16,281 bases of DNA, taken from NCBI GenBank assembly GCA_027604685.1, contig JADHYX010000441.1:1-16281 (forward strand). The letters are read 5' to 3'. The notes below the pieces were generated by a model. That model was not told where the DNA came from. It did no database searches and saw only the letters and a program-made list of their open reading frames with translations. Every line of letters starts with the position of its first letter. Position 1 is the stretch's first letter. Shown in pieces: positions 295 to 11,149 of the stretch. This DNA is from Lobulomyces angularis (taxonomy: Eukaryota > Chytridiomycota > Chytridiomycetes > Lobulomycetales > Lobulomycetaceae). A program made the position numbers and the translations under genes.

Positions 295-1360
295 TTAATA
301 AGTTAATTCTTCTAACAATTTAAAAATACTTTTTTCAAATATTAAATTTAATTCTACTGTGCTTTTACATAATATTAAACCGGAAAATCCAATGCTATTC
401 ACACTAAAAAAAATGTCATTATCCAATAAAATCTTTTCTTTTTTTCTTGGAATTATCAAAATCCAATCTTTAGTAAATAAGAGATTATAACTAAAATTTA
501 TTGGTTGTGTGTCTTTATTAATAATGATTCCCTTTTGTTTTAATTTTTGTAAACAAATTTCATAAATAATCTTAAAATATTTTAAGACAGTCTCCCCATT
601 AACAGATTTACCAAAAGGAAATTTAACGATTGAATGGATAAAGTTAAAATTTGGGATTTCAGACGGAACTCCTAAAAAAAAAAAAAATTTTTTTGGTTTT
701 ATGATAACTTTTTAAGATTTTTTTTCAGATGAAATTTTTAAAATGCATAAAAAAAAAAAAAAAAAAAGAGAAAAAATCTTACCCACAGTTATAGAAACAC
801 ATGTAGTTTAGTACTGCAGAATCGGTTTCTGATTGACTTAAAAAATCCCACGCAGTTTGAAAATCATTGATGTCTGGATTTTCTAACTGAGACTGAAATT
901 CTAATTGCCAAAAAAAAAATAAGAACTTCTTTTTGTTTTCAAAAAAAAAAAGGTACCTTTTGTAGTAATTAAGACGTGGTAGGGAGATATTGAAAATTTG
1001 TTAAGTAAAAAGTTATGATGTGCATTCTCAGCAATAAAAAGATTCTTATCAAATGGTAAAAATGGATTTGGTTTCTTTCCATCTAAAGAGCGATTTAAAC
1101 CGTCAGAAGGTTTTTTAAATAGTGAAACTGCTAATCTAATGTGAAACTATTTTACAAAGTTAAAAAAAAAAATTAAAAAAAAAAAAAAAAACTTTTTAAA
1201 CATAACCACTTTTTTTTTTTAAAAAAAATATTTACATAAGATTGTGTTTAAAATTTACCTTTACTGAATCCTCTTCCTTAATGTGTAAAACAGTTGGTGT
1301 AAAAATTAAACTTTTATTACTTTTTGCACTTTCAAAAGTTTTTTTTGTTAAATGAAACAT
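295..1360 (-). CDS. APA2: Ap4A phosphorylase (ATP adenylyltransferase), catalytic segment missing
   Basis: Apa1/Apa2 enzymes split diadenosine tetraphosphate with phosphate into ADP and ATP, using a HIT-like HxHxQ histidine. Exons (minus strand): 1259-1360, 957-1146, 783-900 and 295-671. Family landmarks appear in order: start MFHLTKKTFE, then LIFTPTVLHIK, FHIRLAVSLFKKP, NPFLPFDKNLFIAE, LLNKFSISPYHVLITTKEF, the run AVLNYMCFYNCG, and the C-terminal domain SYNLLFTKDWILIIPR and SVNSIGFSGLILCK, ending LLEELTY and a TAA stop. The first two introns (1147-1258 and 901-956) splice cleanly. Between FYNCG and VPSEIPNF the expected SGASQPHKHLQ-like motif is absent, and the exon phases do not match: the upstream exon ends in phase 2 while the downstream one needs phase 1. 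About 50 residues are missing compared with the usual ~320. The cause is either sequence lost in the poly(T) stretch or a decayed gene. The family call is firm; activity is doubtful. Confidence 0.85.
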
Positions 1361-1983: not shown

Positions 1984-4412
1984 TTAATAGTTTAAAAATA
2001 ATTCTTCAAACATTTTTCTAAATCTTTCTGGCAATCCATACGTTCCTGCTGACAAAAAAATACTAGGTATATGCTCTAAACCAGAGACTATCAACTTGTT
2101 GGATATGCAGGTAATGTTTGTAAAACAATAAAACACATATCTACCAGTTATATAGTCGGTACTTTCCTCTTCCACTAAATAAATTCAAATATGGTATTAA
2201 ATAAATAAGATTTTTGAACAAGAAAATTATTATTTGTTACCATAATCATGAAAAGGTTTTTTAAAATTAAAAAAGCTCTCCTCGCTTTTTGCAATAACAG
2301 CATATTTAAAGTTTTTTCGCTTAAACATTAATGTAACGACAAGATCATTCCTGCTATGAGATTCATCATAATTAAAAACGCAGAGATTTTTGTAAAATCC
2401 TGTAAAAAAACAATATCTAAAAAAAGAAAAGAAAATAAAATTACTTCCAAGTTCTTTTACAAACCTTAGCCTTTCTAACATTGGAGAAGCAGCGTTCACT
2501 GGCTTAAATTTAAGATTGTTAAGATTAAACTCTAATTGTTTTTTTTCTTCATTTAAAACTAAAATTTTTTTTACTTTTTGTTCAAAATCTATAGTTTTTA
2601 AAACCTTTTTACATTTATTTTTTATTTTGGATATATATTTCATTGCATTATAGCAAAGGTTGTTGTCCGTACAAAATTTTTTCTTTTGTTCTGAATTGAT
2701 GTTTGTTAAATATTCATGATAGTCGTGTGAAATACACAATAACATACTACTAGAATATTTAACAAATGGATTGGGAATCAGTAAAATTTCCTCTTCCTCT
2801 TCATCGTAAGTCAAATCAACAATCAAATTCCTATCTATTTCATGAACGCAATTAAAAACTTGATCGTTAGCATCTCTGAGTTTAAATGGCTTTTGGTATA
2901 TTAAAAAAGACAAAATTGTTAAGCATTCGTCAAAGCAGTTTAAATCAATGGAATATATTAGCATCAAGAGATGCTTCGCCTCGAAACCTAAGCAAGCAGT
3001 TTCTAATAAAATTTCACCAAACAATGTACAGCTAAAAATATCATTCCTTTTTTCCAACATATCTAGATCCAACAACTGTTCTACGGTATGAGAAATTTCT
3101 TTTTCAGTTGGAGTTTTATACCACTGAAAATTATAAAAATCAATGTGGCATTTTACCATTCGTAGGATAGTTATTTCTAAATTTTCAAACTCTGGGTCAT
3201 ATTCTTTTTTAAAATTATCTAAATCATCTTTACTATACAAACAAAACATTGTACCAGCATGTGTTCTTCCTACTCTTCCCTTTCTTTGCAGATGCGAAGA
3301 TTGGGATATATTTACCACATTTCTATTTTTAATTCCAGTAACCAAACATTCTTTAACTTGAAACTGTAGCCCAGAATCCACAATATATCCCAAATTTGAA
3401 AAAGTAATGGAAGTTTCTGCAATATTTGTTGCAAAAATTACCCTTCTATAATTTCTATTCACTGAATTAGAAATAACAGACTTTTTAATTTCTTCTGGTA
3501 GCGATGAATAAAATGGTAAAATCGCCAAGTTTTCCAATTTTAATTTTCGCATTTGAGAACATGCTGTTTCAATGTCTCTAGATGTTGGAAGAAAAACTAA
3601 AATATCTTCGTACATTGTTGAAGGTAATTTCGATGTCTTAGTCTTATGTAAATTTGATGCTACATCAACACATGCATCGACAATATTTGTGTTAAAAGGG
3701 CGATCCATAAATACTGTTTCCACAGGATAGCCTTTTTTTTATTAACATTTAATTTAAGTTTTGTTTTTACAATAAAAAAATACCCCTTTTATTCCTGCAT
3801 TTGATAACATTGCATTCACCAAAAAAGTCAACTAATGATCTCTCCTTTAAAGAGGCTGACATCAAAACAACTCTTAGTTCCTTATTGAATACAAGGGCTC
3901 TTTTTAAGTAGCTTAATAATAGAAAAAGTTGAGAACTAAAAAAAATTAATATTAATAACATAAATTAAATTTTTAATATTTACCTTAATTCGTGACATTC
4001 GTCAACAAAAATTACTGAATATTGCGAAAACGAGGAATTGGAAGTGCATTGCCCTAATAAGATTCCATGTGTAACGTAGATAAGTTGAGTGACTAACTTG
4101 TTCGCAACTGTCCTCTCTCCTCCTAAATTATATCCAACTTCCTCTCCTAATTTTGTATTTCTAAACTCTTTGCTGTAGTTTGCAAGTGAGGCTGCCGCGT
4201 TTCTCATTGGTTGCGCAACTATAATAGGTTTCATAGAAGTATTTTCAGAGGTTATAATTTTTTCGTTTAAAAGTATCTAAATTTTTTAATTATTTATATT
4301 AAAGTTGGAAAATTACCTGTGGAATACAATGCGATTTTCCACTTCCAGTATCGGAGATTAAAATAGTTAAATTAAATTTTTTAATAGATTCGACAATATC
4401 TCTTCCATAATC
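1984..4412 (-). other. DEAH/RHA-type helicase module with HA2 and OB-fold regions
   Basis: Motifs in order: LAIYDYGRDIVESI before motif I; SDTGSGKS (motif I, 4332-4352); PIIVAQPMRNAAAS (Ia); LGEEVGYNLGGE; YVTHGILLGQ (Ic-like); VDECHEL (II); VVLMSASL (III); DILVFLPTSRDIE (IV); RRVIFATNIAETSIT with YIVDSGL (V); QRKGRVGRTHAG (VI). HA2 follows (EQLLDLDMLE, CFDECLTILSFL, IPNPF), then an OB-like tail (FRYCFFTGFYKNLC to the TAA stop). The DILVFLP, TNIAETS and HA2 features place it in the DEAH/RHA group of 3'-5' SF2 RNA helicases rather than the Dicer/RIG-I group. Confidence 0.92.
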
Positions 4413-7400
4413 ATAGATCGCCAGTGTTGTTGATGCCCTTTTGATAAGTTCGACTTCAACATCTACAACTCTGCCAACTTCATGAATGCTAGAATGTGCC
4501 AACCTTTTTTCATCACAGTGTAGAATATTATTTAAAAATTTTAAAAAATTAGCTTCCCTTTTTAATAGACATTCAATATATCTTTCAGATTCCTCTAACT
4601 GAGATATATTGGAAATTGTAGAAGAGCTACTATAAGATGTTATGTCAGTACTCTTCCATGATATACAGCCTAATTTTTTTTCATTTTTACTAAACATCTT
4701 TCCTTTAACAGCATCATTTTTGTATGCAAGTATGAAACTTTTAAAATTTTTTTCCAACTGAACCATTCGATCTGTGGTGAAAGTTTCTTTAACATTGCAG
4801 TTGTTGATACCATTGCAAACACCAAAGCTCTTCATTTTTACAAAAATTTTCTCAAAGATGATTTCTTGAAAAACTTGCTGAATATTAAAAAGCCTCTGAG
4901 CTCCAAATTTTAATTTGATTTCATAAAATAGCCGTTGATGGAGATTGTTGAAATTACAAGAAGAAATGTCAAAATCAAATTCTACCTTTTTCCTAAAATT
5001 TTGAATTTTTTCCATTTCTATAATATGTAATGACTTTACTTCGGATTCGAATTCTCTTTTGAACGGTAAGTTATCTAATATATTTGTTTTTTCTTTAAAC
5101 TTCAACCTAAGCTTTACAACGCTTTGCTTAAAGGTTTCCCAAAATAGATCTGTTAAATGAAATAATTCAAATCTTTCCTCAAATATTCGTTTGCAAGACT
5201 TCAATTCTTTTAAAAACCAATTTTCTAGTTCTCCAAATGTGGAGAGCTTTGATGATGACTTCAAATTTATTTCTCTCTCTAAGACGGACAATAACGTATC
5301 AATCTCAGGTATCCCCTCTTCATCATCAACGCCTAGATTAAATATTGTATTTAATAACATTAGCGTTTCATCACTTTCCGCTTCACTTTCAGCTTGCAAA
5401 GATAACTGATATTTTCGGATGAGTGAGTCAATTTTTCCAACTCGCTCGAAAGGTTTTGAGGAAATGAAAAAATCAACATCTGTTTCACACGGTTTTGTAG
5501 GTATAACGGGTATATTTCTTCGTTTAAACGCATTATAAATAGTGTTTCTCATTACTGTTGTATTGTAATCAAATGATTTTACAGAAGTTTTTGGAATGAA
5601 ATTTTGGTCCCAAATAACAAAAAATTTATCTCCATCTAAATCACCACCACTTGCTTGATAAGCATGAGGAACTGGTCCTTGAGTTGGAAAAATGATGACA
5701 TCTGAAATGTGAGAAAATTCCGGAACGTTGACTGTAAAAATAACAATTTATTTTTTTTAGTTAAAAATTAAGTTTTTAAATCAGACCTGCATCTAGAATT
5801 ATGATATCCCCTGGATGATAACATGGGTTACGAAGTATAGCAACTTTCCCTAAATATATAAGGTTTATTTTGCCAAAAAAAAAGGCAAAATTACCTAAAA
5901 TAACTACATTTTCTCCATCTCTCATAATATTTACAAAGCATTGATTGTAAGATAATTTTTTTCCATCTGTTAAAGGTGGTTCGGCAGTGCCAAACAATAA
6001 GCTGGACGCTACAGGTATTCTCACTCTTAAACTTTGATGGTCTGCAGCATTGAAGTCGTTGTTAAATTCTTTGAAGTTAGTAGCAGGTTTACTCCAGGAA
6101 CATATATCAGAGAACTGTGAGTTCAAAATATTTCTCCACATTCGTTTCAAATCTCTCAAATTAACTGACTTTTTCAAAATACACACTGCAATTTCATCTA
6201 ACTCAGACTTTCTCCCTATATATTAAATGATGCTTTTAATTACGAACAAATTTAGTTTAATTAACTATAGATACCAGTCAAATGTAGATAGTTCAAGCAG
6301 TGTTCAATGTCAAGAAATGCCCCTTGCAAGGAGTTTAAATATATTAAAGAATGGTTATGTATAAACTCCGTTGATACTCCTCTTTTAATCAACAAATATA
6401 GCGCTTGCGAGTTTAAAAAATGATTTGATATAAATGGTTTACTGGTGCTAATCACATAATATGGCAGTGTAGGAAAAAAATTTGGATTTGTTGGAGATTT
6501 TACAAATCTTAACAGATTAATTTTGATCATTGATTTTCTAAATAAAAATTAGTTGATGATAGGTATTACGATATTGACTATTTAATTAAAACCTAATGTG
6601 GATTGTACGCAATGGTAAGTATTTATTAATTAGTAACACTCCTTTTACGCCAGGTAGCCGTACTTGAAATAAAGATGGGAAATTCTTCAAATTGGAGTTT
6701 TTTTTTCTTAAAGAATTTTTAAAAAATTCAGCAGCCAAATCCAAACTGATAAAGCCACAGCCCTCAGTAAAGTTAAAATTATTTATCTTTATATCTTCGA
6801 TTAGAATTATATTGACTGAATTCGAAACAACAATGTTGTCAAATTCATTCAACAAGAATCCTAAAATTTTTGATTTTTTACTTGGACTTAAACCGTTCAA
6901 TTTAAAAGTGCTATTAAAATATTCAAAAGAATTACGTTTAACGAGAAAGCAACTTTTTGACTCCATTTGAGATTTTGTTGCACCAAAAAAAACAAACTCA
7001 GTGTTGTTGAACTTTAGAGGATTTTTTAATCTTTCGTAATAATTATTTAAATCATTTAGATTGTTTAAGGAGAATTTTATAAAACAATCCTTGCATTCAA
7101 AATTTTTTGCACTCAACAAATGGGTCAGGAAGCAAAATTTATTTGACACAAAATGCAAGTTTTGAAATTTACTCTTTTTTATAAATATCGCTGAAGAAAA
7201 TCTAAAGGATTCCATTACATCAAACTTAAGATTTTCTACGAATATAAAAAAAAAAAAATTTAGTTATACTTTTTCGAGAAAAATATTTTTACTGCAAGTT
7301 AGGTCTCCTTCCTTAATTAAATGATCTTTTGCAGTTTCTTTTAAAAACGCTGACAATGACAAGTCATTAGCGGCAGCGCCAACTTCTTGTGCTTAAAAAA

Positions 7401-8180
7401 TTTTATACATTTAGTTTTCAAATGGAAAAGAAAAAATACCAAATGTTCCTACACTCTCGGAAATGCCAGAGATTTTGTCTTTTTCTAAATAAAATTAATT
7501 AGTCTCGGCTATGTAAAATACCAAGTAATGGCAAGGACGTAACAACAGAGTTCTCTTTTTTTATTTTGATTTTAATTAACGCGAAGAAATAATGCTTACC
7601 TTTTATTATAATAACCCCAAAATCCTTTGACCCTTTTAGTTCTTTTTTATCATTAAGATATTTATAATTACAATTTTTTGTTGAATTTACGTTTAATTTT
7701 TCAACTAAAAAAAGAAGTTGGAACTTTAATAAAAACTGGCTTACCTACGCTGGAAATATTGAATTTTTTCTGTGAAAGAATGGAAACATCATCGTCACTC
7801 TCATCGATAATAATAACGTTATCTGAGAGAACTTCAGATTTTACTGTTTTTTCCTTCACATTTTTAATATTAAAAATTTCACCAGGTATAACTTCTATAT
7901 ATTTTTGTGTTTTGTCAATTTTTTCGATTCCATCAACCAGAAACTTATAGTAAATGTTTGAGCTTATATCACACAGAATGGATGCTTCCCAGATCTTTTT
8001 CGAAAAATCAGAGTTTCTCATAATGTGTCCACGAGTGAAGTTATCAACACTTAAAAAAATTATAATTGATGTATTTTTTTCAGTGGAAGTGTAGTAAAAT
8101 TTTTCTGTCTTTGCACTTCTCAATTTAACTTTTTTGTTAAAATCTCTTTTATATTCAACATTTAACTTCTTTCTTTTCAT
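1984..8180 (-). CDS. RNA-dependent RNA polymerase fused to a C-terminal DEAH/RHA-type RNA helicase, with an N-terminal CBM48-like domain
   Basis: Exons (minus strand, 5' to 3'): 7745-8180, 7600-7704, 7522-7554, 7440-7484, 7293-7391, 6593-7235, 6275-6537, 5895-6215, 5787-5849, 4317-5731, 3984-4276, 3784-3935, 2241-3731, 1984-2174. They sum to 5,550 nt, or 1,849 residues, and all thirteen GT-AG introns (37-66 nt) keep the frame. Order of parts: basic N-terminus, E-set/CBM48-like domain (about 36-97), SUMO-interaction-like motif (122-131), RdRP (about 240-729, DLDGD at 700-704), a linker without a recognised domain (about 730-1110), then helicase (Walker A 1130-1136, DECH 1233-1236, SAS 1265-1267, QRKGRVGR 1438-1445) with HA2 and OB-fold regions to the end. 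The start at 8180 has an in-frame TAA 24 nt upstream. The likely role is making and remodelling dsRNA in RNA silencing. RdRP and helicase calls are near certain; the single-protein model rests on phase and needs transcript support, and the tiny exons at 7440-7704 are its weakest part. Confidence 0.88.
4413..5552 (-). other. Linker of about 380 residues between polymerase and helicase
   Basis: Residues about 730-1109 match no domain I recognise. They are rich in Lys, Glu, Phe and Leu with predicted helical character, an acidic patch QAESEAESDE (near 5387-5416) and a serine-rich stretch (near 4605-4650). The usual RDR region after the catalytic loop, with its HSxAVDFPKTG-type motif, is not visible. 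The linker may replace or be a highly diverged version of it. Confidence 0.6.
5553..7235 (-). other. RdRP catalytic module (RDR/QDE-1 family)
   Basis: Conserved RDR stretches occur in order across exons 6-10: FFGATKSQM (322-330), FTEGCGFISLDLA (395-407; family F-S/T-DGxGxIS, here with E for D), SLFQVRLPGVKGVL, IRKSMIKI, FLNSQALYLLIKRGV, RIPVASSLLFG, NQCFV, GKVAILRNPCYHPGDIIILDA, then VIIFPTQGPVPH and SGGDLDGDKFFVIWD. The metal-binding aspartates D700, D702 and D704 are at 5628-5642. This is the double-psi beta-barrel cellular enzyme, not a right-hand viral RdRP. Confidence 0.95.
7890..8075 (-). other. CBM48/AMPK-beta-like E-set domain, N-terminus of the RdRP-helicase
   Basis: Residues about 36-97 follow the AMPK-beta glycogen-binding pattern: a hydrophobic strand then VDNF at 45-48 (family: WDNW), a tryptophan at 64 in IWEAS, then YYKFLVDG at 77-84 (family: YxYKFxVDG), and a closing DKTQKYIEV. 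The aromatic after VDG that stacks on sugar in true binders is not obvious, so carbohydrate binding is uncertain; the fold could serve protein or RNA contacts. The call is by pattern only. Confidence 0.6.
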
Positions 8181-8600: not shown

Positions 8601-11149
8601 TCATAAGAACGGTTCAATATTTAATTCTAGACAACTGGTTGGATAACTAATTTCAAACTTTCGTAACACTGAAGGATGAACTACACCAAAGACACCTACA
8701 ACTTTATTGTTATAGTAAATGTCGGCTTTTCGACCTTGAAAATAAGTTGGATCTACAACCAAATTAAAAAACGAAAGATATCAGGTAAAAAATCTTACGT
8801 TTACTTTCTTTAATGTAGTAACCATTATCTTCACCAACTTTTACATGTTTGACACCAAGTTTTATCATCAATGCATCCAAAACTCCATGGATTGGCCCGA
8901 ATCCACTGTGTGTATCACAATGAGCAACACAAATGTTTCTTTGATTTCTTGCTCTCCTTTCCAGTGAGTCATCTTTGAAAACGACATCAGAAACTTCAAA
9001 AAGTTTCAGTGGTAATCCGTGCTTTCTTGATTCCTTTAAAGTTTTTAAAATTCCAGGCATTAAAGATGTTCGCACCACCTTTCAAATAGTTTTAGCCTTT
9101 TATCGAATTATATTTTAAAAAAAATTCATACCTGATATTCAAAAGTTTTTGGATTTGCTAACTTAACTGCTTCAGACAAATCATCCATTTTCTGTAAAAA
9201 AGCAAAGTTTTCATCATGAGAGCACTATCATTCAATAAAACTTTATTATCAAACAGTGACAATAATCTCTTTACCAATATTAAAGGGAGAACTTCAGTGT
9301 AACCACATAATGCTATTTCATATCTAATTTGATCACTGAATTTATTTAAATTGAAAGGTGCAGATACAGTATTACAGTTTGGTATACTTTCAGGAATATT
9401 ATTAAACCCATAAGCAACTGCCACATCTTCCATTATATCACATGGATGCAAGATATCACTCCTAGTAGGAGGAACTTGCACTATAATCTTTTCACCTTCA
9501 TTTTTAGCCTCCACGGACATTTTTTTTAGTAAGGAAACAATTTTTTGAGGGGTTAAAATGTTTTTAGAAACTCCAATACAGCTAGAAATAAAATCTGTGG
9601 TTGTTTCTACAATTCTCGAGCTTAAGTCTGGATATAGAACCTTAGATTTATCAGCATTGATGACTTCTACTGCTTCAACACTATTATAGATTGAAAAATA
9701 TGAGTAAAAAAATTATAAATTCAAAATATGAAATATAAAGATAAAAAAGAAAGTAGTTCATTTAATTATTGCATTCAAAACTTACGTGAATTTTTCCTTG
9801 CAATATTCTGAAAACATTAATACAACATCATTTAACACAATTTTGGCTTTGGTCAAGTCCGTTGCAGTGCATTCAATAAAAACATTTTTTGTAGTTAATT
9901 TAATTTTTGAGTGTTCACTATTGATAATTGGTGGCAAACTCAGTACAATACCATTTCTATCTTTAATAACAGGAAACACAGGTGAATCTTCAATGATATG
10001 CAAATATTTCTTTAATTTATTAGTTTTTTCAGTTCGATAATATTCGAATAATGTTTCTCCGTTGAATTGAGAAGTTTGACTTAATGGAATAAAATTAATA
10101 TCTTTTGGAGGTAAAGCTTCATAGAAAAAAGGACCTTCAATGGTATCTAAATCGTGGGTTCCAATAGCCACTAATTTCCTATTTCGGCAAATGTTACCAT
10201 GAAGTTTTTCTTGTAAATCAATGAAGTTATTGTAAGATTCTTGGGTAAAAGTAATATCTCTTAGAATTGCAGCCACTGCGTATGGTCTAATTTGCCCAGT
10301 CTTGAATTATTAATATCTATTTTTTAATCTTAAAAACAGTTTGAATTTACCTCAGCTTTCACCAACAGCTGTTGCGGCTTTTTGGGACATACTACTTTAT
10401 ACTTTGGAATATCAAATCCTCCTAAATAAACTTTTAAAGCTCTAGTCAATCCTTCTGGGCATAAAAGATCAATCCTTAAAAAATAAATTTTTTAGTTTTT
10501 ATTAACAAAAATTTTACAATTTCGAAAATAAATAAAAATAACAGCAATAATTAAAGAGAAAAAATTCATCTCTCATAATTAATACCTATTTGCAGGAATA
10601 TCAATACGATAAATGGGTCTCGTAGATAATTCTTTTTTTGCAATTTTCACATCTTCTACAGCTTTATTTTCAGTTACTACTTCTTTAGCCTTTTTGCTTT
10701 TCGCTGCATTATCCACTGTAACTGCACCCACTTCTTTCATAGCCATTTCCTTTTCTGAGGTCTACATAATAATAAAAAATAATTAAGTAAATAAATTTTG
10801 AAACAGAAAAAAAAAGAAATGTTTCTTGAATTAAGATAATCATATAATAAAAATAATACCTCTTCTTCTAGTTCTGAAAAATTCAAAAAAATGATAAAAA
10901 GTTAGAAAAAACACAATGAAAATTTTATTTTTGTCAGAAATAAAAAAAAAAAAATTTCTAAAATTAAATCATACCTATGCCAAATTCGAAGCATAGTTCC
11001 TCAAAATCTTCTTTGGCTAAATAAAAAAAAAAAAAAAAAAAGGTAAAGAAAAAAATCAATAAAATTTTTTGTCAAAATAATAAATAATTACAAAATTTTT
11101 TTTCTAATGCAATTTCTAAATATTCTTTATCAACTGAAACTGTTGGCAT
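8601..11149 (-). CDS. FRS1: Phenylalanyl-tRNA synthetase beta subunit, cytosolic
   Basis: With the alpha subunit, this protein charges tRNA-Phe in the cytosol; the beta chain holds the B3/B4 editing site and the B5 domain. Exons (minus strand): 11092-11149, 10975-11016, 10860-10873, 10586-10761, 10351-10474, 9786-10300, 9275-9680, 9132-9224, 8799-9078, 8601-8752. They sum to 1,860 nt, or 619 residues, close to the ~595 of yeast Frs1. Landmarks: start [26 protein letters not shown] across three exons, [120 protein letters not shown] and the end [11 protein letters not shown] with a TGA stop. All nine introns (46-111 nt) keep phase. One exon is only 14 nt, and its joins restore the family sequence exactly. 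The 5' end faces the SnoaL-like gene across about 180 bp. Confidence 0.97.

What the first reader, a model, noticed from the sequence alone, without database searches (positions are those of the whole stretch)
1984..8180. RNA-silencing polymerase fused in frame to a C-terminal DEAH/RHA helicase
Seen: complete RDR-family motifs including DLDGD (5628-5642) lead without a stop, through a 1,415-nt exon, into Walker A (4332-4352) in the same exon. The fusion junction therefore does not depend on any splice prediction. The helicase then continues over three introns that all keep frame. Known: fusions with an N-terminal helicase occur in Dictyostelium Rrp proteins and oomycete RDRs, and those helicases are Dicer-like or DEAD-type. 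Inference: a helicase behind the polymerase, of the DEAH/RHA class with HA2 and OB regions, is a different architecture. It could unwind the template or the dsRNA product in the same molecule, replacing a separate silencing helicase.
Basis: partly seen in the sequence, partly recalled or inferred. Interest (0 to 1): 0.88.

Follow-up and report, generated by a model that had tools for sequence, protein, structure and literature searches.

The report
RNA-copying enzyme with built-in helicase
A chytrid fungus gene makes one protein that joins an RNA-silencing RNA polymerase to an RNA-unwinding motor, an arrangement that also turns up in other chytrids, water moulds, a dinoflagellate and a marine worm and that I did not find described.

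Summary
Confirmed. Minus strand 8180-1984 encodes one 1,841-aa protein (1,825 if a 48-nt in-frame intron is removed): RdRP (PF05183), then an SF2 DEAH/RHA-type helicase. GGDLDGD and Walker A lie in one stop-free exon. The organism is Clydaea vesicula or very near it (1,437 of 1,449 aligned residues). It is not unique: of 304 proteins scanned (302 listed by three searches, two capped, plus two of this genome), 28 carry both modules, 28 of 28 with the RdRP first: seven named chytrid genera, Aphanomyces, the acoel Convolutriloba, the dinoflagellate Prorocentrum. Fused helicases form one clade beside DEAH11/12-type helicases; fused RdRPs form one beside RdRPs with a C-terminal SF1 helicase. One fusion is favoured, two not excluded (AU p 0.04-0.11). 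C-terminal SF1 helicases on RdRPs are in print (Fusarium Fgrdrp5); ten literature searches gave no DEAH version. HA2 is below cut-off and OB undetected in this copy. Likely role: a 3'-5' motor clearing template for the polymerase; that is inference. The genome also has an Argonaute match, two Dicer loci and a second RdRP with an SF1 helicase in front.

The parts
1984..8180 (-). whole gene, ATG 8180 to TAA 1984, 13 exons in my model, 1,841 aa (1,825 aa if 2464-2417 is spliced)
   Evidence: hand splice model without stops; motif coordinates
7293..8180 (-). N-terminal extension (aa 1-228), exons 1-4; weak resemblance to the AMPK glycogen-binding domain at aa 64-112 (7991-7845)
   Evidence: AMPK1_CBM 19.5 bits against cut-off 26.8 on exon 1 alone; among the 304 proteins held only P0001 matches this part
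5358..7047 (-). RdRP domain PF05183, aa 292-786, E 6.7e-65 (place includes introns)
5628..5648 (-). GGDLDGD catalytic loop, aa 690-696
   Evidence: present in 28 of 28 fused proteins
4317..5731 (-). junction exon 9 (aa 662-1133), carries GGDLDGD and Walker A without a stop
4434..5231 (-). linker, aa 829-1094
   Evidence: bounds from the profiles; no linker homology found between chytrid/oomycete and acoel types
4326..4355 (-). helicase motif I, SDTGSGKSHC, aa 1121-1130
3833..4391 (-). RecA-1 (PF00270, aa 1109-1265, E 4.5e-11; place includes two introns)
3989..4006 (-). motif II, VDECHE
3262..3612 (-). RecA-2 (PF00271, aa 1322-1438, E 7e-11) with TNIAETSIT (3429-3403) and QRKGRVGR (3288-3265)
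2878..2964 (-). HA2_C-like stretch, aa 1538-1566, below the Pfam cut-off
   Evidence: 18.7 bits of 21.3; 20.4 on exon 12 alone
2417..2464 (-). probable 48-nt in-frame intron inside exon 12; P0001 lacks the 16 residues
1984..2478 (-). C-terminal region (aa 1700-1841) where an OB fold would lie; supported by the family profile only
   Evidence: profile of 15 chytrid/oomycete-type proteins 94.9% to the DEAH11 set; window with P0001 alone 1.2% to the DHX8 set

Best explanation
The gene encodes one polypeptide: an RNA-silencing RNA polymerase with its own SF2 DEAH/RHA-type motor behind it. Shown: both modules, their order and their catalytic motifs in one reading frame, and the same order in 27 other proteins. 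Inferred: it works in the RNAi pathway with the genome's Argonaute and Dicers; the motor moves 3' to 5' on RNA, as DEAH/RHA helicases do (recalled knowledge), which is also the direction in which a polymerase reads its template, so the motor clears structure and bound protein from the template, or feeds it, and dsRNA is made in one processive act. It would be an RNA-directed RNA polymerase complex in one chain, comparable with Rdp1 plus Hrr1 in fission yeast (recalled). Inferred from trees: probably one old joining of an RdRP to a DEAH11/12-like helicase, later inherited or transferred as a unit.
For: Open 1,841-aa model; RdRP, DEAD and Helicase_C above cut-off; junction inside one exon; 28 of 28 proteins with both modules have the same order; GGDLDGD in 28 of 28, GSGK[ST] in 28 of 28; helicase clade 100/98 and RdRP clades 99/94 and 97/89; module distances correlate across 24 of the 28 (Pearson 0.94, 0 of 2000 permutations as high); one Argonaute match and two Dicer loci; Fgrdrp5, which I take for a member of the neighbouring SF1 group by its domain positions, is reported with a part in ascospore discharge, with a suggested link to exonic siRNAs (PMC11237814, passages).
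Against: No transcript or protein evidence. The window copy departs from relatives: QPMRN where PRR is invariant in the 23 proteins of alignment A3, GKSH for GKST, DECH, weak HA2, no detectable OB. Linkers show no homology between the chytrid/oomycete and acoel types. Two separate fusions are only weakly disfavoured (AU p 0.044 for the helicase; 0.106 and 0.051 for the RdRP). The DEAH11/12 group beside the fused helicases is itself weak (80/43) and the tree holds no DHX9, DHX36 or Spindle-E rows. The correlation of module distances is what any two genes inherited together would give; it speaks against reshuffling, not for one origin.
Confidence: 0.5

Rival explanations
1. The helicase acts on the product: it unwinds or remodels the new duplex, to release single-stranded copies for Argonaute, recycle the template, or hand ends to Dicer.
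For: Same anatomy; DEAH motors load on a 3' single-stranded end, which a product end could offer (recalled knowledge).
Against: Dicer needs duplex, and two Dicer loci are in the genome, so unwinding the product would work against it; no direct test.
Confidence: 0.25
2. The helicase part is mainly an RNA-binding or recruiting platform, with weak or no unwinding.
For: Window copy has QPMRN, GKSH, DECH, a weak HA2 and no detectable OB; long end branch, 1.06.
Against: Motifs I, II, III, V and VI are all recognisable in the window; relatives keep PRR (invariant in 12 of 12 in A1 and 23 of 23 in A3).
Confidence: 0.15
3. Not an RNAi factor but an RNA surveillance or antiviral enzyme that uses both activities outside the Dicer/Argonaute pathway.
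For: A role unrelated to RNAi was speculated for Branchiostoma RdRPs (PMC6396948, passages).
Against: The genome holds Argonaute and Dicer matches.
Confidence: 0.1
4. Two adjacent genes, or an annotation artefact, that only look fused.
For: P0082 is listed with helicase domains only, P0210 (Obelidium) and P0212 (Chytriomyces) with RdRP only; no transcript was seen.
Against: Single open exon across the junction; 28 of 28 with the same order; P0082 begins with what reads as a piece of the region that follows the RdRP, so it is probably a truncated fusion (my reading).
Confidence: 0.04

Closest known systems
Fusarium Fgrdrp5 type: RdRP with C-terminal SF1 (DEXDc/AAA_12) helicase
   Same: The RdRPs with a C-terminal SF1 helicase are the nearest RdRP group; helicase behind the polymerase. 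Fgrdrp5 itself was not in my set; I place it here by the domain positions in PMC11237814 (passages)
   Different: SF1 NAM7/UPF1-like helicase; a stretch of about 620-830 aa before the helicase in 17 proteins; no linker homology beyond the RdRP edge
Oomycete, Dictyostelium, Hydra and Nematostella RDRs with N-terminal DEAD helicase
   Same: RdRP plus SF2 helicase in one chain
   Different: Helicase in front; the paper reports that this coincides with Dicers lacking the helicase (PMC4791657, passages), whereas both Dicer loci here show a helicase motif VI by eye
DEAH11/12 helicases (KH, RING/IBR tail)
   Same: Nearest helicases in the tree (union with the fused clade 98/93; the DEAH11/12 group itself 80/43); five acoel-type fusions match them over the OB region and the KH/RING/IBR tail by profile
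   Different: No RdRP listed in them; no such tail found in the window
Fission yeast RDRC (Rdp1, Hrr1, Cid12), recalled
   Same: Polymerase and helicase work together
   Different: Separate subunits and an SF1 helicase

Membership tests
Eukaryotic RNA-silencing RdRP (PF05183) | RdRP domain above cut-off | tested here: met
   220.3 bits against 23.8; among solved chains RDR2 7eu0 4.8e-27, 2j7n 1.7e-10, and 5fsw, named QDE-1, 6.4e-10
Eukaryotic RNA-silencing RdRP (PF05183) | DbDGD catalytic loop | tested here: met
   GGDLDGD at aa 690-696
Eukaryotic RNA-silencing RdRP (PF05183) | RNA synthesis and a role in RNAi | not testable with these tools
   needs biochemistry and mutants
SF2 DEAH/RHA helicase | motifs I, II, III, V, VI | tested here: met
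   TGSGKS, DECH, SAS, TNIAETSIT, QRKGRVGR; best solved relative DHX8 6hys 2.3e-51
SF2 DEAH/RHA helicase | HA2 domain | tested here: inconclusive
   18.7 and 20.4 bits against 21.3; family profile matches the region
SF2 DEAH/RHA helicase | OB fold (PF07717) | tested here: inconclusive
   not found in the window by Pfam; profile of 15 chytrid/oomycete-type proteins 94.9% to the DEAH11 set, window with P0001 alone 1.2% to the DHX8 set
DEAH11/12 | KH and RING/IBR tail | tested here: not met
   no such domain in the window at E up to 1; in acoel-type relatives by profile only, not by Pfam in the three scanned
N-terminal helicase RDR | helicase in front of the RdRP | tested here: not met
   order RdRP then helicase
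Fgrdrp5-type RDR | SF1 AAA_11/AAA_12 helicase | tested here: not met
   window helicase is PF00270/PF00271
RDR-DEAH fusion group defined here | falls in both fused clades | tested here: met

The most novel reading that the evidence does not exclude
RDR-DEAH proteins are an old, separate class of silencing polymerase, formed once when a DEAH11/12-like helicase was joined behind an RdRP and kept as a unit in fungi, oomycetes, dinoflagellates and acoels; the acoel-type members may carry polymerase, helicase, KH and RING/IBR (E3 ligase-like) regions in one chain, and this chytrid runs two silencing polymerases, each with its own helicase of a different superfamily on opposite sides.
Probability: 0.5. 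Interest if true: 0.75.

Novelty: new variant of a known kind. Interest (0 to 1): 0.62.

Why it matters
It offers a one-chain system in which the question of what helicases do for RNAi polymerases could be asked with a single change in one protein. It may also explain why such polymerases are overlooked: P0001, P0003, P0024 and P0031 are named after other RNA helicases (dhr2, dhx15, prp43; [quoted passage not shown]

Tried and rejected
Two genes read as one: rejected on the open junction exon and the 28 proteins. Recruitment of a recent in-genome paralogue: outside the gene itself the own genome gave matches on eight contigs, at 37% identity or less (only the best candidates are scored there); four of the eight were put in the tree and fall elsewhere, one of them (own_C84) filling only 32% of columns. 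A helicase swap on a shared scaffold: linkers of SF1- and DEAH-bearing RdRPs match only over 43 columns at the RdRP edge; chytrid/oomycete and acoel types do not match; even the two chytrid/oomycete subsets match only over 60 columns at the helicase edge. So it stays open. A viral source: one scan of viral contigs, limited to two short motifs, gave three loci, all matching the helicase part only. The glycogen-binding look of the N terminus stays below the cut-off. Splice attempts that failed first: intron 4 of the window gene and two splice sites of the second RdRP gene. The front half of that gene's helicase was not joined (its P-loop exons would not join in frame by my reading), and Pfam finds no AAA_11 in the two exons scanned.

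Literature: ten searches (only for the organism name) of the held open-access library gave me no description of an RdRP followed by a DEAH helicase; most subscription papers and all preprints are missing there. Of the papers, I saw listings or passages, none in full. Genus-to-group assignments other than Clydaea, Convolutriloba and Prorocentrum are recalled.
Full report
Observation. The window is one whole contig (C437, 16,281 bases) of a 20.76-Mb, 533-contig assembly. On the minus strand a hand-made splice model from ATG 8180 to TAA 1984 has 13 exons, 12 GT-AG introns of 40 to 115 nt, and an open frame of 1,841 aa. Pfam gives RdRP at aa 292-786 (E 6.7e-65), DEAD at 1109-1265 (4.5e-11) and Helicase_C at 1322-1438 (7e-11), all above cut-off, and HA2_C below it. 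GGDLDGD (5648-5628) and SDTGSGKSHC (4355-4326) lie in one 1,415-nt exon with 0 stops in one frame and 32 and 53 in the others; 426 codons lie between DLDGD and TGSGK, and they would stay open by chance with p about 1e-17 from base composition. Motif II reads DECH. A 48-nt in-frame stretch (2464-2417) looks like a further intron, because P0001 lacks exactly those 16 residues.

Organism. P0001, from Clydaea vesicula (Chytridiomycota, Lobulomycetales), matches at 1,437 of 1,449 aligned residues, 12 substitutions. Its NCBI model, named dhr2, skips stretches that include part of the RdRP. In the own-genome searches the other helicase matches are 37% identical or less and RdRP matches lie at this locus and at C129 only.

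How common it is. Three protein searches were made: the RdRP part (80 hits among 7,172 candidates, all listed), the helicase part (1,407 hits, 120 listed) and an alignment of 12 fusions (256 hits, 120 listed). With profiles built here, 304 proteins were scanned (the 302 listed, the window's and the second RdRP): 28 carry both modules, and in 28 of 28 the RdRP comes first. They are not 28 independent cases: one is P0001, essentially the same gene, and several genera have more than one. GGDLDGD is in 28 of 28; within the stretch matched by the helicase profile, a DExHE motif is found in 27 of 28 and QRxGRxGR in 23 of 28, three of the five misses (P0002, P0109, P0199) being named partial. Apart from the window these are database proteins; I saw no transcript evidence for any.

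Trees. RdRP tree of 48 rows chosen from 84 with a long enough match: the 14 RdRPs with a DEAH helicase form one clade (99/94), beside 13 RdRPs with a C-terminal SF1 helicase (89/52), together 100/98. A second tree of 55 rows, with more SF1-bearing and helicase-less RdRPs, gives 97/89 for 16 fused rows plus one helicase-less Obelidium protein of 709 aa, P0210; the SF1-bearing rows there share their side (94/96) with 12 helicase-less rows. Helicase tree of 59 rows (23 of the 28 fused, P0001, P0012, P0200, P0203 and P0209 left out; 32 other listed proteins; 4 own paralogues): the fused rows plus P0082 form one clade (100/98); with 14 DEAH11/12-like rows, themselves weak as a group (80/43), they make a clade of 98/93. 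The other rows came from hits to the query, so DHX9, DHX36 and Spindle-E are not in the tree. P0082 has no RdRP hit but starts with what reads as a piece of the region that follows the RdRP (my reading), so I take it for a truncated fusion. Distances in the two modules correlate across 24 of the 28 proteins (Pearson 0.94, Spearman 0.92, 0 of 2000 permutations as high; quick trees); this speaks against reshuffling of the modules but would be expected of any two genes inherited together. Against one origin: holding acoel-type fusions with the neighbouring unfused helicases is rejected only weakly (AU p 0.044), holding their RdRPs with the SF1 side is not clearly rejected (0.106; 0.051), and the linkers show no homology between the two types. 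I put one fusion at about 0.7. Aphanomyces falls within the chytrid side, next to the unnamed P0004, which may mean transfer but cannot be settled here.

Tail of the helicase. By profile comparison the region behind the RecA core of 15 chytrid/oomycete-type proteins matches that of 9 DEAH11-type proteins (94.9%, 146 columns), but the window with P0001 alone does not match the DHX8 set (1.2%); five acoel-type proteins match the DEAH11 set over the OB region (98.6%, 228 columns) and, further on, over its KH/RING/IBR tail (96.9%, 262 columns). Pfam finds no KH, RING or IBR in P0038, P0207 or P0208 and only a sub-threshold OB in P0207 (15.5 bits of 29.5), so that tail is a profile-level statement.

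Setting in the genome. One Piwi match. RNase III matches lie on C415 (two), C111 and C27, Dicer-dimer matches on C111 and C415; I take C415 and C111 for Dicers, and both show a QSRGRAR helicase motif VI by eye, while C415 is cut by the contig end. A second RdRP gene on C129 (minus, about 37402-29447) reads from an SF1 helicase C-terminal half (AAA_12, 4.8e-42) into an RdRP (8.7e-163), with the join inside one exon, 34102-33764. Thus both RdRP loci found carry a helicase, of different superfamilies and on opposite sides.

Mechanism. Shown: the motifs of two enzymes in one frame, a conserved order, co-divergence. From established knowledge (recalled): DEAH/RHA helicases move 3' to 5', and an RdRP reads its template 3' to 5', so both run the same way on the template. 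Inference: the motor clears or feeds the template, making dsRNA synthesis processive. Rivals are product remodelling, a binding platform and a role outside RNAi. The window copy's QPMRN (PRR is invariant in the 23 proteins of A3), GKSH and weak HA2 caution against assuming full helicase activity.

What is known. N-terminal helicase RDRs are described (PMC4791657, passages). An RdRP with DEXDc/AAA_12 at its C-terminal end is described in Fusarium (Fgrdrp5; PMC11237814, passages) and one with AAA_12 in Branchiostoma (PMC6396948, passages). Ten literature searches gave me no RdRP-DEAH protein described. So this is a new variant of a known kind, spread over several lineages rather than unique. [quoted passage not shown]

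Noticed in passing
L008/L009, G000 C129:37402-29447 (-): Second RdRP gene of the same genome: SF1 helicase in front, RdRP behind, join inside exon 34102-33764; its nearest RdRP in the trees is from Suillus. The mirror arrangement to the window gene.
   Followed up: partly
P0034, P0038, P0046, P0207, P0208: Acoel- and dinoflagellate-type fusions: profile comparison suggests a DEAH11-like KH/RING/IBR tail behind the helicase, not seen by Pfam in the three scanned: possibly polymerase, helicase and E3 ligase in one chain.
   Followed up: partly
   Followed up: no
window 7845-7991 (-): N-terminal exon resembles the AMPK glycogen-binding domain below the cut-off (19.5 bits of 26.8); among the proteins held only Clydaea P0001 matches it.
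   Followed up: partly
window 8764-10306 (-) and 295-1146 (-): Neighbours are a phenylalanyl-tRNA synthetase beta gene (B3/4, B5 and CLM domains) and an Ap4A phosphorylase-like gene.
   Followed up: yes
L041, L042, L043: Three viral-collection contigs encode helicases matching the fusion's helicase part at 24-26% identity; no match to the RdRP part was listed.
   Followed up: no
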